NCBI GenBank assembly: GCA_003248315.1
Contig: QKWM01000004.1
Span: forward strand, 4,461,001 to 4,525,000
From: Streptomyces sp. SW4
GTDB lineage: Bacteria; Actinomycetota; Actinomycetes; Streptomycetales; Streptomycetaceae
Reading direction: 5' to 3'
Length of the DNA: 64,000 bases
The notes below the pieces were generated by a model. It was not told the DNA's origin, did no database searches, and saw nothing but the letters and a program-made list of their open reading frames with translations. Both the position numbers and the translations under genes were made by a program. Of the stretch, positions 41,978 through 52,630 are shown piece after piece; within the stretch, counting starts at the first letter, position 1; every line of letters begins with the position of its first letter.

Positions 41978-42951
41978 ATGAGCATGACGCCCCCGCCCGG
42001 CTGGTACCGAGACCCGTCGTCCCCCCACCTGGAACGCTGGTGGGACGGCACGGCCTGGACCGAGCACCGGCGCGCCCCGGAGCCCGCCGGGCAGCCGCCG
42101 GTGCCGCCGCCGCAGCCGACCGTGCCGCTGTTCACCGGCGGCCCGGCACCGTCCGCGGTGGGCACCGGGCGGGGCAGGGCCGTCGCCGTGACGGCCGCCG
42201 CCGCGGTCCTCGTCGCGGCGATCGTCACGGGCGCGCTCGTCCTCGGCGAGGACGGCGGCGGCGCCGCGGACGCCGGGCCGCCGCCGGGAACCGTCTCCAC
42301 CGGCGCGGCACCGGCGGGCGAGCCGCCCACCGCCTCGCCCTCCACCGCCCCGCCCCAGGCCTCCGGGCCCTCCGCCGACGATCCGGCCGTCGTCGAGGAC
42401 CAGCTCAACGGCGTCACCTTCCCGCTGCTCGACGGCTGGGTCCGGCCGCAGTACGTCTCCCAGGACGACGTCATGATGACCACGGACGGCACCTACGACT
42501 GCCCCGGCGACGAGGGCGTGTGCCGGCACGGCATGGTCATCTCCCGCACGGTGACCGTGAACGACGAGACCTCGCCCAAGGTGCTCGCCGAACAGGACAT
42601 CGAGGACGCGGCCGAGGACGCCTACGACCGCGACCTGATCGGCAACAAGCCCTTCGGCGGCATGGAGTCCCACGAGGTCGTGAAGTCCGGGCCGGTCGCG
42701 GTGGCCGGCCGCGCCGGGTACTTCGTCCGCTGGCGGGTGAAGACCGCCAAGGGCCCGGCGGCTACGTCCAGTCGCTGGTCTTCCCGTCCAGCGTCGGCAC
42801 CGGCTCCCCGGTCCTCGTCCGCTACGTCTTCGACGCCGGCGAGGACGGCCCGCCGCTCTCCGACATGGACAGGATCACCAAGGGCATCCGGGCGGTCGGC
42901 GACGCGGACCCGGGCGGCGGCGTGGGCAACAGCCTCGGCCCGGCCGACTGA
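41978..42951 (+). CDS. DUF2510 membrane protein
   Basis: Expected 324 residues. N-terminal DUF2510 motif PPGWYRDPSSPHLERWWDGTAWTEH, a Pro-rich linker, one transmembrane helix (AVAVTAAAAVLVAAIVTGALVL), a Ser/Pro/Ala linker and a C-terminal extracytoplasmic domain of about 170 residues with two cysteines (YDCPGDEGVCRHG) that could form a disulfide. One G is missing at about 42757 (AKGPGGYVQSLVFP expected). Function unknown. Confidence 0.82.
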
Positions 42952-44438: not shown

Positions 44439-46266
44439 ATGAGCACCGAAGCGCCACGCACCCGCGCCGCCTTCCCTCCGCCCCCGCCACGCCGCCCCGC
44501 CGGCCGCGCCGCCCGCCCTCCGGGCCGCCCGCTGCCGCGACTCCGGCATCACGTCGCCGCCTCCGCCCCGAGCCTCCGCGCGCTTCCGGACGCGCCGCCG
44601 ACCGTGGGCGCCGGCCCGCCGCCCGCCGCAGCCGCCCCGCACCGACGGCCCGGACCCGACCCCGGCCCGCCGCCCCGCCCGGCGCCGTCTCCGGCGCCCG
44701 GTCCGGCGTCGCAGCCGTCGTCCGGTCCGGCGTCGCAGCCGTCGTCCGGCGCGGCCTCACCGGGGTCGCCGTCGTCGCAGCCGTCGTCCGGCGCGGCCTC
44801 ACCGGCCTCGCCGTCGTCGTCCGGCCCGGGCTCGCCGTCGCCGTCGTCGTCCGGTCCTGCGGCGTCGGCCTCGCCGTCGTCCGGTGCGGCGTCGTCGCCG
44901 ACGGCCCGTCCCGCCTCGCCGTCCCCTCGGGCCGACGCCCCCGCCGAGAGCGCCGCGGAGACGACGACCCGCCTGCGGCCCGTCACGGACGGCCCCGCCG
45001 CGGGGTCTTCGGGCGGCTCGGGCGCGGCAGCCGCTGCGCGCGGTTCCGCGTCCGGCCCGTCCGGACAGCCCGGCCAGCCCGGTCACCCCGAGTCCGCGCG
45101 TACCTCGCACACCCCGCACACCCCGTCCGTGTCCCGGGCCGGCGCCGACGCCGACCCCGGCGCCGGGCCGTCCGGCCGCACCGGCACCACGGTGGGCTTC
45201 ATGGCCGGCGGCGCCCAGGGGACCCCGACGCCGGGCGGGCAGGGAACCCCGGCCGCTCCTGGTGCTCGGGAACCTCGGCCGGTCCCGGTGCCCCGGGCAC
45301 CCCGGCGGCCCCCGGCGCTCAGGGCACTCCCGGTGCCACCGGGGGCCAGGCCACCCCCGGTGCCACCGGCGGCCAGGGAACCCCGGCCGCCCCCGGCACC
45401 CGCAGCACCTCCGTCGTGCCCGACCCCGCGTTCTCCTGGGGCTCCCCGACGGTGTCCGTCGGGGAGCCGGCCGGGTACGGCCGCGGACGTACGGCGCGGC
45501 CGGCGGGCGGGCGGATGCGGGGACAGGCCGTCGCCGCGGGCGTCTGCCTCGTGCTCGGGCTCGGACTCGTCACCGGCGCCGTCACCGGCAGCTGGCTCAC
45601 CGGCGACTCCGGCGACGACGGCGCCCGCCGCGGGTTCGCCGCGGCCGGCGAGCTGTGGCACAGCGTGCCGGTCGACCGGCTGTTCCCGCCCACGGTGGCG
45701 GGCCGCGGCGCCGGCCCCGGCGGAGCCGACCGCACCTGGACCCGGATCGCCGTCGCCCCCGACGGCGGCTGCGCGGACGCCTTCGACCCCCTGCTGCGCA
45801 AGGCCCTCGCGCCCGTCGGCTGCGCCCGCCTGCTCCGCGCCACCTACACCGACGCCACGCAGAGCCACGTCACCACCGTCGGCCTGCTGTTCACCAAGGC
45901 CGACGCCGCCGCGATGACCGCGCTGGCCCGCCGGTTCGACCGGGAGGGCCTGGACCGCCGTACCGACCTGATGCCGCTGCCGTACGCCGCGAAGGGCACC
46001 GTCGCCGCGGACTTCGGGGCGCCGCAGCGCGCCGCCTGGACGGTGTCCGTCCTCACCGACGCCCCCGTCGTCGTGTACGCCGTCTCCGGCTGGGCCGACG
46101 GCCGCACCGTCGACGACCCGCTGCCCGCCGAACAGGCCATGGCCTCCGGCGAGACCGCCGCCCCGCGCAGGCCGGCCTCGGCCACGAGGCCCAGGGCCTC
46201 GCCGACCGCGTCGAACGCGGCCTGCGCAAGACCGCCGACCCGACCGCCACGGAGACGCCCCGGTGA
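44439..46266 (+). CDS. Pro/Ala-rich single-pass membrane protein coupled to mycosin
   Basis: Expected about 609 residues from ATG 44439 (MSTEAPRTRAAFPPPPPRR). The first 350 residues are low-complexity: a Pro/Ala/Ser stretch with SSGPAS-type repeats, then GTPAAPGAQ and GATGGQ repeats. One transmembrane helix follows (AGVCLVLGLGLVTGAVTGSWL), then an extracytoplasmic domain of about 200 residues (RTWTRIAVAPDGGCADAFDPLL, GCARLLRATYTDATQSHVTTVG). Frame breaks at 45268-45270 and 46161-46164. The stop overlaps the mycosin start by 4 bases. No named domain is recognised. Confidence 0.78.
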
Positions 46267-47450
46267 CAGCCGCCCGAAGCCGCCGCGGTGCCGCGCTCAG
46301 CCTCCTGCTGGCCGCCGCCGTCGCCCTCGTCCCGGCCACCGCCGCGCACGCCGACGGCATCCGCGCCCGGCAGTGGTCCCTCGAGGCCATGCACACCGCC
46401 GAGGCCTGGCAGACCACCCGCGGCGCGGGCGTCACCGTCGCCGTCCTCGACACCGGCGTCGACGCCGGCCACCCCGATCTCGCCGGGAACGTCCTCGACG
46501 GCAGGGACCTGGTCGGGTTCGGTGCCGGGAAGGGCGACCGCGCCTGGGCCCGGCACGGCACCGCGATGGCCGGGATCATCGCCGGCCACGGCCACGGCCC
46601 GGGCAACGCCGACGGCGTCATGGGCGTCGCGCCCGAGGCGAAGATCCTGCCCGTCCGCGTCATCCTCGAGGACGGCGACCCGGCCCGCGCCAAGGCCCGC
46701 AAGACCCGCGGCAACGCCCTGGCCGAGGGCATCCGCTGGGCCGCCGACCAGGGCGCCGACGTCATCAACCTCTCTCTCGGCGACGACTCCGCCTCCGCCC
46801 ACCCCGAGGCCGCCGAGGACGAGGCCATCCAGTACGCCCTCGACAAGGGCGTGGTCGTCGTCGCGTCGGCCGGCAACGGCGGCGAGAAGGGCGACCACAT
46901 CTCCTACCCGGCCGCCTACCCCGGCGTGATCGCCGCGACCGCCGTCGACCGCTACGGCACCCGCGCCTCCTTCTCCACCCGCCGCTGGTACGCCACGGTC
47001 AGCGCCCCCGGCGTCGACGTGATCATCGCCGACCCGGACCGCAAGTACTACGAGGGCTGGGGCACCAGCGCCGCGGCCGCCTTCGTCTCCGGCGCCGCCG
47101 CGCTCGTCCGGGCGGCCCACCCCGGCCTCACCCCGGCCCAGGTCAAACGGCTGCTGGAGGACACCGCCCGCAACGCGCCCGAAGGGGGACGCGACGACTC
47201 GCGCGGCTTCGGGTTCGTCGACCCGGCCGCCGCCATCGAGGCGGCCGGCCGTCTGGACCCGGCCGGGCTCACCGCGGCCGCGTACGGCGACGAGTACTTC
47301 GGCCCCGGCCCGGACACCGGCGGCCCCGGCGACGACCCCTCCGGCTGGGCCGCCCCGCTCGCGGGCGGCGCCGGCGGCGTCCTGCTGGTCGCCTCCGTGA
47401 TGCTCTGGCGCGGCCGGCGCCGCCGCCTCGCCGAGTCCGACCGCCTCTGA
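46263..47450 (+). CDS. Type VII secretion-associated subtilisin-like protease (mycosin)
   Basis: 395 residues, intact. Signal peptide LSLLLAAAVALVPATAAHA; subtilase core with Asp (VTVAVLDTGVDAGHPDLAG), His (WARHGTAMAGIIAG) and Ser (EGWGTSAAAAFVSGAAAL); oxyanion-site AGNGG. C-terminal transmembrane helix (LAGGAGGVLLVASVMLW) and an Arg-rich cytoplasmic tail anchor it on the outer face of the membrane, the mycosin layout. No ESX core genes (EccB/C/D, WXG100) are in the window, so it is an orphan or acts with the upstream membrane protein. Confidence 0.9.
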   Translation: MTAARSRRGAALSLLLAAAVALVPATAAHADGIRARQWSLEAMHTAEAWQTTRGAGVTVAVLDTGVDAGHPDLAGNVLDGRDLVGFGAGKGDRAWARHGTAMAGIIAGHGHGPGNADGVMGVAPEAKILPVRVILEDGDPARAKARKTRGNALAEGIRWAADQGADVINLSLGDDSASAHPEAAEDEAIQYALDKGVVVVASAGNGGEKGDHISYPAAYPGVIAATAVDRYGTRASFSTRRWYATVSAPGVDVIIADPDRKYYEGWGTSAAAAFVSGAAALVRAAHPGLTPAQVKRLLEDTARNAPEGGRDDSRGFGFVDPAAAIEAAGRLDPAGLTAAAYGDEYFGPGPDTGGPGDDPSGWAAPLAGGAGGVLLVASVMLWRGRRRRLAESDRL

Positions 47451-47514: not shown

Positions 47515-48246
47515 GTGGCGAACAAGAACATCCCCGACCCCGGCTTCTCCGACGACGACGGCTCCGCCGACCCCCGGCTGAGCGCGGCACTCGCCGCCTG
47601 GGCCGAGGACCGCACCGCCGTCGCACCGGTGCTCGAAGCCCTCCGGGACGCCCGGCTGCTCGTCCCCGTCGTCGCCGTGCTGGGGGAGGTCGAGGAGGAC
47701 GCGAACGGGCTGCGCCGCGAGAAGACCAGCGACATGGCCGTCCCCACCCTCAAGGCGGCCGGCCGCACCGCCCTCCCGGCGTTCACCTCCACCGACTCCC
47801 TCGCCCGCTGGGACCCGGCGGCGCGCCCCGTCGCCGTGCCCCTGCACCAGGCGCTGCAGGCGGCGGCGCACGAGAAGGCCGACACGGTCGTGCTGGACCT
47901 GGCCGGACCGGTGCCGTTCGAGCTGACCGGTCCCGTCCTGCTCGCCCTCGCCGAGGGCCGCACCACCACCGACCCGCTCGCGGACCCCGCGGTCGCCGGG
48001 GCCGTGCGCACGGTCCTCGCCGCCGAGCCCGCCGTGCTGCGCGCCCACCTCGGACCGGGACGGGCCGACGGCACCCTCGCCCTCGTGCTCGACCCCGCCG
48101 CACCGGCCGCCGAGGCGGCCCGCGCCGTGGCCCGGCGGCTGGCCGCCGACGAAACGCTCAGGGCCCGCCTGGTGCGCGGCCTCGACCTGGCGGTACTGCC
48201 GGCCGAGGTCGTCCCACCGGGCGAGCCCCTGTACGTGAAGGAGTAG
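47515..48246 (+). CDS. SseB-family protein
   Basis: 243 residues from GTG 47515 (MANKNIPDPGFSDDDGSADP). SseB N-terminal domain: LSAALAAWAEDRTAVAPVLEALRDARLLVPVVAVLGEVE, then EKTSDMAVPTLKAAGRTALPAFTSTDSLARWDP. A second region resembles the SseB C-terminal domain. Despite the family name, such proteins in Streptomyces are cytosolic with no type III system; function unknown. Intact. Confidence 0.88.
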   Translation: MANKNIPDPGFSDDDGSADPRLSAALAAWAEDRTAVAPVLEALRDARLLVPVVAVLGEVEEDANGLRREKTSDMAVPTLKAAGRTALPAFTSTDSLARWDPAARPVAVPLHQALQAAAHEKADTVVLDLAGPVPFELTGPVLLALAEGRTTTDPLADPAVAGAVRTVLAAEPAVLRAHLGPGRADGTLALVLDPAAPAAEAARAVARRLAADETLRARLVRGLDLAVLPAEVVPPGEPLYVKE

Positions 48247-49022: not shown

Positions 49023-49649
49023 ATCAGCGCCGAGCCCCGCATCAACGACCGGATTCGCGTTCCCGAGGTGCGACTTGTCGGTCCCAGCGGCGAGCAGGTC
49101 GGGATTGTCCCGCTTGCCAAGGCCCTGGAGCTTGCGCAGGAGTACGACCTCGACCTCGTCGAGGTCGCGGCGAACGCCCGTCCGCCCGTGTGCAAGCTCA
49201 TGGACTACGGGAAGTTCAAGTACGAGTCGGCCATGAAGGCCCGTGAGGCGCGCAAGAACCAGGCGCACACGGTCATCAAGGAGATGAAGCTCCGGCCGAA
49301 GATCGACCCGCACGACTATGACACCAAGAAGGGTCACGTCGTCCGGTTCCTCAAGCAGGGCGACAAGGTCAAGATCACGATCATGTTCCGTGGTCGCGAG
49401 CAGTCCCGGCCCGAGCTGGGCTACCGGCTGCTGCAGCGGCTCGCGGAGGACGTCCAGGACCTCGGCTTCGTGGAGTCGAACCCGAAGCAGGACGGCCGCA
49501 ACATGATCATGGTCCTCGGTCCGCACAAGAAGAAGACCGAGGCGATGGCCGAGGCCCGCCAGGCGCAGGAGGCCCGCAAGGCGTCCGCGAAGGCCAACCC
49601 CGGCCGCTCGCAGAACCCTGCGGACGCCGAGGAGCCTGCCGAGGCGTGA
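49023..49649 (+). CDS. infC: Translation initiation factor IF-3 (ATC start)
   Basis: Binds the 30S subunit and controls start-codon selection. Residues from the start read [20 protein letters not shown], the usual N-terminus, and continue through [20 protein letters not shown] and the C-terminal [19 protein letters not shown]. No ATG, GTG or TTG occurs in frame at the expected site; ATC 49023 follows GAGGAGG (49012-49018) at 4 bases. IF3 genes of many bacteria use non-canonical starts (AUU, AUC, AUA) for autoregulation. 208 residues, with a Lys/Ala-rich tail. Intact. First gene of infC-rpmI-rplT. Confidence 0.93.
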
Positions 49650-51491: not shown

Positions 51492-52630
51492 ATGCACGTC
51501 GGCACGAGCAGCGCACCGGGAGCACGTCAGGCGCGGCGCCCGCCCACGCCCCGCCGCCCCGGTGACCTCGCCGACCTCGGACTCGACCCCGACCAGCTGC
51601 CCGACGGACTCGTCGTCGCCGACGAGCACGGGCGCGTCATCTGCTTCAACGCCGCCGCCGAGCGCATCACCGCCCGGCGCGCCGCCGACACCCTCGGCCG
51701 GCGCCTGGAGACGGCCCTGCCGTTAGAGGACCTCGAGGGCCGGCGCTGGTGGCAGCTGACCGACCCCTACGGCGGCCTCGCCATCCGGGTCCGGCAGCCC
51801 GAGCGGAACCTGCTGCTGCCCGGCGGACGGGAGGTGCTTGTCTCCGCCCGCTACGTGCGCACCCGCCCCACCGGCCCCCTGCACCGCCTCGTCGTCACCC
51901 TGCGCGACACCGAGGCCCGGCGCCGCACCGAGCGCAGCCACGCCGAGCTGATCGCCACCGTCGCCCACGAACTGCGCTCCCCGCTCACCTCCGTCAAGGG
52001 CTTCACGGCCACGCTGCTGGCCAAGTGGGAGCGGTTCACCGACGACCAGAAGCGGCTGATGCTGGAGACCGTCGACGCCGACGCCGACCGCGTCACCCGG
52101 CTCATCGCCGAGCTCCTCGACATCTCGCGGATCGACAGCGGACGGCTGGAGGTCCGACGCCAGCCCGTCGACATCGGCGCCGCCGTCGGCCGCCACATCC
52201 AGGCCTACGTCGCCTCCGGCCAGCCCGCCGACCGCTTCCTGCTGCGCCTGTCCCAGCCGCTGCCCGCCCTCTGGGCCGACCCCGACAAGATCGACCAGGT
52301 GCTGAGCAACCTCCTGGAAAATGCCGTGCGGCACGGCGAGGGAACCGTCACCATCGACATCACGGCCACGGCGTCGCCCCGCGAGGGGGAGGACGCCGGC
52401 ACGTCGGTCACGGTGAGCGACGAGGGGCCCGGCATCCCGGAGGAGTCCATGAACCGCGTCTTCACCCGCTTCTGGCGGGCAGCAAGCGCGGCGGCACCGG
52501 CCTCGGGCTCTACATCGTCAAGGGCATCGTCGAGGCCCACGGCGGGACGATCACGGTCGGCCGCGCCCCCGGCGGCGGCGCCGAGTTCCGATTTACGTTG
52601 CCCGTGAGCGCTCCGGCCTACCTGGCCTGA
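51492..52630 (+). CDS. PAS-domain sensor histidine kinase with a TTA codon
   Basis: Expected 379 residues from ATG 51492. PAS domain ([22 protein letters not shown]), H box [22 protein letters not shown] box [16 protein letters not shown] boxes [10 protein letters not shown] and [18 protein letters not shown]. No transmembrane segment, so cytosolic. One G is missing at 52477-52479 ([15 protein letters not shown] expected). Leu78 is encoded by TTA (51723-51725), the rare codon read by bldA tRNA. No response regulator gene is adjacent. Confidence 0.9.

What the first reader, a model, noticed from the sequence alone, without database searches (positions are those of the whole stretch)
44439..47450. 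Orphan mycosin coupled to a large disordered membrane protein
Mycosin normally acts with the ESX/type VII machinery, none of which is within the window. Here it overlaps the stop of a protein with a 350-residue Pro/Ala/Gly-rich cytoplasmic part, one membrane helix and an unknown external domain. The two probably form a complex on the outer membrane face. This is the best candidate for an under-described system in the window.
Basis: partly seen in the sequence, partly recalled or inferred. Interest (0 to 1): 0.52.

Follow-up and report, generated by a model that had tools for sequence, protein, structure and literature searches.

The report
Mycosin protease unit independent of ESX
Nearly all Streptomyces genomes examined carry, beside a translation gene, a pair of overlapping genes for a membrane-tethered protease and an unnamed membrane partner; the pair stays even in species that have lost the secretion machine this protease is thought to belong to, so it probably does a different, unstudied job at the cell surface.

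Summary
The two-gene unit is real. Window 46263-47450 encodes an intact S8 protease that passes NCBI's mycosin model. Upstream lies an unnamed membrane protein with a long Pro/Ala/Gly-rich tail, one membrane helix and a two-cysteine outer domain that matches no Pfam family. In relatives the partner is one ORF whose stop overlaps the mycosin start by four bases (79 of 80 named loci). In this assembly it is split over three frames, probably by indel errors.

The outer domain occurs in 141 of 150 genomes of the genus. Eleven of the 150 lack an EccC over cut-off; EccB is absent from all 11. Ten of those 11 keep exactly one over-cut-off mycosin, always beside the partner. Three genomes of a second family keep tandem pairs without EccB/EccC. 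Partner-linked mycosins separate from those without a partner in an unrooted tree (100/98); the partner tree shows the same groups.

Best reading: an ESX-independent protease-receptor complex on the outer membrane face. Independence is well supported, physical contact inferred, sensing speculative. The outer domain weakly resembles the PknH sensor domain; a direct profile test did not confirm this.

The parts
44439..46266 (+). Partner gene (split over three frames in this assembly): disordered Pro/Ala/Gly-rich N-terminus, one membrane helix, two-cysteine outer domain
   Evidence: single ORF in relatives
45527..45598 (+). Predicted single membrane helix of the partner (N-in, C-out inferred)
   Evidence: read by eye from the translation P0001
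45599..46266 (+). Outer domain of the partner; invariant Cys at 45770-45772 and 45821-45823 and motif LRATYxDxT
   Evidence: alignments A1 and A2; codons checked; model pLDDT 83.4, pTM 0.83 for the relative L116
46263..46266 (+). GTGA overlap of partner stop and mycosin start
   Evidence: same ATGA/GTGA overlap in 79 of 80 named loci
46263..47450 (+). Mycosin-type S8 protease: signal peptide, catalytic domain (Asp 46449-46451, His 46554-46556, Ser 47067-47069), C-terminal membrane helix about 47355-47417
   Evidence: TIGR03921 339.8 bits; PF00082; triad columns, codons checked
47515..48246 (+). Neighbour: SseB-domain protein, constant neighbour but not shown to be part of the unit
   Evidence: PF07179 90.2 bits; found in 77 of 80 named loci
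49068..49649 (+). Neighbour: infC-like gene that marks the chromosomal position
   Evidence: found in 73 of 80 named loci, (several of the others end before it); the name infC is recalled, no call assigned it

Best explanation
The two genes encode an ESX-independent, membrane-tethered protease unit on the outer face of the cytoplasmic membrane. The mycosin (signal peptide, subtilase domain, C-terminal membrane helix) is translated coupled to a single-pass partner whose outer domain most likely holds or regulates it, while the partner's long disordered tail lies in the cytoplasm and may link the complex to an internal factor. Shown: the genes, their overlap, matching tree groups, an intact triad in the infC-linked mycosins, and persistence without EccB and EccC. 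Inferred: physical contact, translational coupling, topology. Speculative: that the partner senses a ligand and controls the protease.
For: Overlapping start and stop in 79 of 80 named loci and mycosin directly downstream in 79 of 80. 141 of 150 same-genus genomes have the outer domain; 8 of the 9 misses are assemblies of 540-1770 contigs, the ninth is 78% complete. EccC over cut-off in 139 of 150; the other 11 have EccB in 0 of 11, with 3 of 3 positive controls. Ten of those 11 hold exactly one over-cut-off mycosin, on the same strand directly beside the outer domain in 10 of 10. In a second family, G400, G302 and G165 lack EccB and over-cut-off EccC but carry tandem partner-mycosin pairs. 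Unrooted mycosin tree: 30 partner-linked rows against 41 without a partner, 100/98; the partner tree gives the same groups. Two Cys columns common in the rows without a partner (35 and 37 of 41) reach half of the rows in no partner-linked group; the window's mycosin has no Cys at all. Asp motif and HGT 79 of 79, GTS 78 of 79 in the named loci.
Against: No interaction or activity data. Branch B pairs sit about 6, 13 and 26 kb from EccC in three genomes, so some relatives may serve ESX. With other subtilases as outgroup the relation of partner-linked and other mycosins is not resolved. The PknH-like fold is weak: best Z 7.5, which the tool rates as possibly a common arrangement, and direct profile comparison gave 0.2-0.4% probability. 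One genome (G012, L093) has a shortened outer domain without an adjacent mycosin. In L209, L278 and L279 the second tandem mycosin has lost its catalytic residues, which suggests a structural role in part. Tandem-type mycosins may fall under NCBI's cut-off (268.6 against 278.75 for L228).
Confidence: 0.52

Rival explanations
1. ESX accessory: the pair acts in trans on the ESX machine encoded elsewhere in the genome, for example capping or processing its substrates.
For: The protease passes the T7SS mycosin model. The window's genome has EccC and EccB, and 139 of 150 genomes of the genus have EccC over cut-off. Branch B pairs lie near EccC, or near proteins that look WXG100-like by eye, in some genomes.
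Against: 10 of 11 genomes without over-cut-off EccC and without EccB keep the pair, and it holds their only over-cut-off mycosin; three genomes of another family keep tandem pairs without them.
Confidence: 0.15
2. Site-1-type signalling: the partner is the substrate. The mycosin cuts its outer domain, which releases or alters the cytoplasmic tail, as in regulated intramembrane proteolysis.
For: Partner topology (long tail inferred cytoplasmic, one helix, outer domain); triad motifs almost always intact in the named loci; short motifs recur in the tail, a RASARFP-like one in 41 of 56 and ETT-x-RLR in 35 of 56.
Against: No site-2 protease or regulator was noticed beside the pair (not searched for by profile); in three tandem loci the second mycosin has lost its catalytic residues yet keeps its own partner.
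Confidence: 0.18
3. The partner is only a tether or folding chaperone for the protease, without sensing or signalling.
For: One-to-one gene pairing and matching tree groups; the catalytically dead copies keep a partner.
Against: The mycosin has its own C-terminal hydrophobic stretch in 76 of 78 relatives measured, so no tether is needed; the long tail with recurrent motifs is unexplained.
Confidence: 0.13

Closest known systems
Mycosin MycP of ESX (type VII) secretion systems
   Same: S8 subtilase with signal peptide and C-terminal membrane helix; TIGR03921 over cut-off; mycosins with and without a partner hold together against seven rows (five proteins) of other S8 proteases of this genome (98/98)
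   Different: No adjacent EccB or EccC; present in genomes without them; no Cys in the window's mycosin, while most rows without a partner share two Cys columns. Passages of PMC8131196 say MycP5 caps an EccB5 chamber; here no EccB is at hand.
PknH-like extracellular sensor domain (PF14032, PDB 4esq)
   Same: Top structural match, Z 7.5, rmsd 4.3 over 142 residues; sub-threshold PF14032 hits in related proteins; single-pass with a Pro-rich part inside (PknH layout recalled)
   Different: No kinase; 0 Pfam hits for the window's own outer domain and none to PF14032 among the families listed for the 74 members of A2; profile comparison not significant; one conserved Cys pair, whereas passages of PMC4118811 give two disulfides for PknH
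EccB, the ESX partner of mycosin
   Same: Single membrane helix with an outer domain and a mycosin as likely contact (EccB role from passages of PMC8131196)
   Different: No match of the partner to PF05108 or to any NCBIfam model

Membership tests
Mycosin (TIGR03921) | Score over NCBI's curated cut-off | tested here: met
   339.8 against 278.75 bits; a tandem-type relative falls just below, 268.6
Mycosin (TIGR03921) | Catalytic Asp, His, Ser and signal peptide plus C-terminal membrane helix | tested here: met
   Triad in 9 of 9 infC-type, 15 of 15 branch-B and 5 of 6 tandem rows; tail hydrophobic stretch in 76 of 78, N-terminal one in 66 of 79 named loci
Mycosin (TIGR03921) | Encoded with ESX core genes EccB and EccC | tested here: not met
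   EccB and EccC are about 3.9 Mb away; pair kept in 10 of 11 genomes without them
Mycosin (TIGR03921) | Cys pair common in mycosins without an outer-domain partner | tested here: not met
   Columns 65 and 353: 35 of 41 and 37 of 41 rows without a partner; under half in each partner-linked group; none in the window's mycosin. That they form a disulfide is recalled
PknH_C (PF14032) | Score over Pfam's gathering cut-off | tested here: not met
   No hit for the window protein; relatives 14.0-22.9 bits where shown, against 27
PknH_C (PF14032) | Fold of the PknH sensor domain | tested here: inconclusive
   Z 7.5 to 4esq, top row; Foldseek gave no match with E below 0.001; hhalign 0.2-0.4%
Known Ecc proteins | Partner matches an Ecc model | tested here: not met
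   0 NCBIfam families for the two partner pieces given; Pfam 0 for the three given and 0 for the outer domain

The most novel reading that the evidence does not exclude
The pair is a dedicated envelope sensor-protease system of streptomycetes and relatives: a PknH-sensor-like receptor without a kinase controls, or is cut by, its own mycosin and passes a signal through its disordered tail. On this view partner-bound mycosins are a branch as old as the ESX-bound ones, and 'mycosin' is not a safe marker for type VII secretion.
Probability: 0.2. Interest if true: 0.75.

Novelty: new variant of a known kind. Interest (0 to 1): 0.52.

Why it matters
Mycosins are annotated and discussed as type VII secretion components. 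If a mycosin subfamily with its own co-inherited receptor works without ESX, such annotations mislead, and the question of what mycosin proteolysis is for becomes testable in harmless Streptomyces strains that naturally lack ESX. A near-universal but unnamed Streptomyces membrane gene pair would also gain a first functional hypothesis.

Tried and rejected
Chance ORF: rejected, since the pair is conserved. Partner as an Ecc protein: no model matched. Homology to PknH_C: weak hits and a top structural match, but hhalign A3 against A4 0.4% and A1 against A4 0.2%, with unrelated comparisons at 0.1%. Other sub-threshold Pfam hits were as good or better: CwsA over the membrane helix (E 4e-4) and DUF7373 (E 3.8e-4). 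PF14032 also gave only sub-threshold hits in 12 of 148 class genomes, so chance is not excluded; left open. PDB sequence search of the outer domain: one chance-level hit with A1 (E 2.4), none with A3. No MycP entry is named among the 60 chains shown of the 121 that phmmer matched to the window mycosin. Third branch (C): relatives of the outer domain in stretches with truA/rplQ-like and rplM-like genes, names by eye, profile-linked to the others (98.6%, E 5.6e-16). That this is the ESX-4 slot of mycobacteria is recalled; the paper search listed no paper with ESX-4. EccB and EccC were over 300 kb away or on other contigs in G239, G424, G408, G185 and G263.

Labels and rows dropped: L213 was first labelled infC-linked and moved to branch B. 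The 41 rows 'without a partner' are rows with no outer domain beside them in the fetched stretch; only L229-L231 (fetched by EccB) and one of L080 are known to lie beside EccB. The mycosin tree left out L003-L006, L008 and L081 and domains under 200 bits; outer-domain hits under 60 bits were not counted as partners. One search sampled 10 rows from each larger group and added six named rows without a partner. One search kept the best 80 of 536 confirmed loci, so these are close relatives. Alignment A2 used 73 of those 80 plus the window. The N-terminal statistics cover 56 of 80 loci. The lists were cut short, so adjacency was not counted over all 150 genomes.

Not in print: searches showed no paper on this pair in their listings; only the open library was searched. 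The SCO1603 passages place it in a duplicated block and among transposase genes, so I do not know the S. coelicolor tags of the pair.

Full report
What is there. Window 46263-47450 is an S8 protease of 395 residues with a signal peptide, an intact Asp/His/Ser triad and a C-terminal membrane helix; it scores 339.8 bits against the mycosin model TIGR03921, cut-off 278.75. Its GTG start overlaps the TGA of an upstream gene that begins at 44439. That gene encodes a Pro/Ala/Gly-rich N-terminus, one membrane helix (about 45527-45598) and an outer domain of about 200 residues with two invariant cysteines and the motif LRATYxDxT. Downstream lie an SseB-domain gene, a small reverse-strand gene (DUF1844 by recall) and infC (by recall).

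Frameshifts. In this assembly the partner is spread over three frames, whereas relatives have one ORF. The genome is 83.4% complete in four contigs, its EccC and EccB matches are split over frames, and other genes in the neighbourhood break frame against a relative. Assembly indels are the likely cause; a real pseudogene cannot be excluded from the sequence alone.

Conservation. The outer domain was found in 141 of 150 genomes of the same genus, this one included. The genus is Streptomyces by inference: 79 of the 80 named loci bear that name (one is titled Kitasatospora), and contig G049:C1 has the length of S. cyaneochromogenes NZ_CP034539.1. Two of the 141 matches are weak (G119 E 1.5e-9, G135 E 3.7e-6). 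In the 80 named loci, mycosin lies directly downstream in 79 and the ATGA/GTGA overlap is seen in 79; L158 is the exception, its outer-domain frame stopping early. From the overlapping start the mycosin frame is open for over 300 residues in 79 of 80; L166 breaks at 288 (L158 passes this count by an unrelated frame and was dropped later). SseB was found in 77 and infC in 73. Over the class, 74 of 394 genomes and 15 of 137 genera matched, third-branch hits included.

Independence from ESX. In the same 150 genomes EccC passes its cut-off in 139. The other 11 were searched for EccB: 0 of 11, while 3 of 3 positive controls matched. Ten of the 11 have exactly one mycosin over the cut-off, and in all ten it follows the outer domain on the same strand. 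The eleventh, G050, is 82% complete in 1770 contigs and has neither. In a second, unnamed family (f17), 12 genomes (one of them from family f37) were checked: EccB in 9 of 12 and EccC over cut-off in 9 of 12; the same three, G400, G302 and G165, lack both, and each carries two tandem partner-mycosin pairs. In the window's own genome EccC and EccB exist about 3.9 Mb away.

Subfamily and co-inheritance. In a tree of 71 mycosins, all 30 partner-linked rows lie on one side of a branch and 41 rows without a partner on the other, support 100/98. With L213 relabelled, the partner-linked rows fall into infC-linked (A, 9), island (B, 15) and tandem (T, 6) groups, and the outer-domain tree recovers the same groups; L211's two copies swap places within T. 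The tree is unrooted. With other subtilases of this genome added, mycosins hold together (98/98), but the order of the groups with and without a partner is unresolved, and the rows without a partner have support of only 79/69. Rows without a partner carry Cys at two alignment columns (35 and 37 of 41); neither column reaches half in any partner-linked group. Some branch B pairs sit near proteins that look WXG100-like by eye and, in G022, G049 and G097, about 6, 13 and 26 kb from EccC, so links to ESX are not absent in the wider family.

The outer domain. AlphaFold2 gave a good model for the relative L116 (pLDDT 83.4, pTM 0.83; 74-row alignment of close relatives); the five models ranged from 34.0 to 83.4 in mean pLDDT. 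The best structural match was the M. tuberculosis PknH sensor domain 4esq (Z 7.5, rmsd 4.3, 142 aligned), then TiME proteins; Foldseek alone had no match below E 0.001 and did not list 4esq among the 50 rows shown. PF14032 (PknH_C) hits related outer domains below its cut-off, including the tandem-type one of G165 (22.9 bits; cut-off 27). Against this, profile comparison with 14 true PknH_C domains was not significant, and sub-threshold PF14032 hits were the only ones in 12 of 148 class genomes. A PknH-like fold is therefore a lead. Passages of PMC4118811 describe that domain as having two disulfides and a large cleft thought to bind a ligand.

Mechanism. Gene coupling, shared trees and one-to-one pairing make a complex the simplest reading. 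Passages of PMC8131196 show that MycP5 caps and stabilises the EccB5 assembly, and passages of PMC5082899 that protease activity is dispensable for secretion there. In the partner-linked group without EccB the outer domain may take EccB's place as binding partner. The triad motifs are kept almost throughout the infC-linked set (Asp motif and HGT 79 of 79, GTS 78 of 79), which argues for active proteolysis. In L209, L278 and L279 the second tandem mycosin has lost the Asp, His and Ser motifs, which argues for a structural role of that copy. The tail has recurrent short motifs (RASARFP-like in 41 of 56, ETT-x-RLR in 35 of 56) that may bind a cytosolic factor; this is inference.

Literature. Searches showed no paper on this pair in their listings. 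PMC10924467 (passages) treats mycosins as type VII proteins and tail-anchored; PMC11217815 (passages) lists MycP as a component of all five mycobacterial ESX systems; PMC5994538 (section 6) lists two S8 deletions in S. lividans, one of them annotated as a T7SS mycosin; that neither is the infC-linked one is inferred from locus numbers.

Verdict. It is a new variant of a known kind, of moderate to good interest.

Noticed in passing
L209, L278, L279 (family f17), second mycosin of the tandem pair: The downstream mycosin lacks the Asp, His and Ser motifs while its partner gene is kept: a likely pseudoprotease copy beside an active one.
   Followed up: partly
L210, L212, L214-L221, L226, L227: A third branch of the outer domain lies in stretches with truA/rplQ-like and rplM-like genes (names by eye) in several genera, with no mycosin hit at E 1e-20 in those stretches.
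   Followed up: partly
L083, L086, L089, L091, L224: Partner-mycosin pairs in islands, some with proteins that look WXG100-like by eye and further Pro-rich membrane proteins of unknown function.
   Followed up: partly
window 41978-42948 and 51492-52627: Two more genes break frame against a relative, which fits indel errors in this assembly.
   Followed up: partly
L093 (genome G012): The outer domain is shortened and no mycosin lies next to it; thiolase and fatty-acid-oxidation-like genes (by eye) follow instead, which suggests a rearrangement.
   Followed up: no
own genome C1:4261236-4263777 (L004, L005, L081): Two tandem S8 proteases that score low with the local mycosin profile (134-140 bits) and fall outside the mycosins in the tree.
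   Followed up: partly
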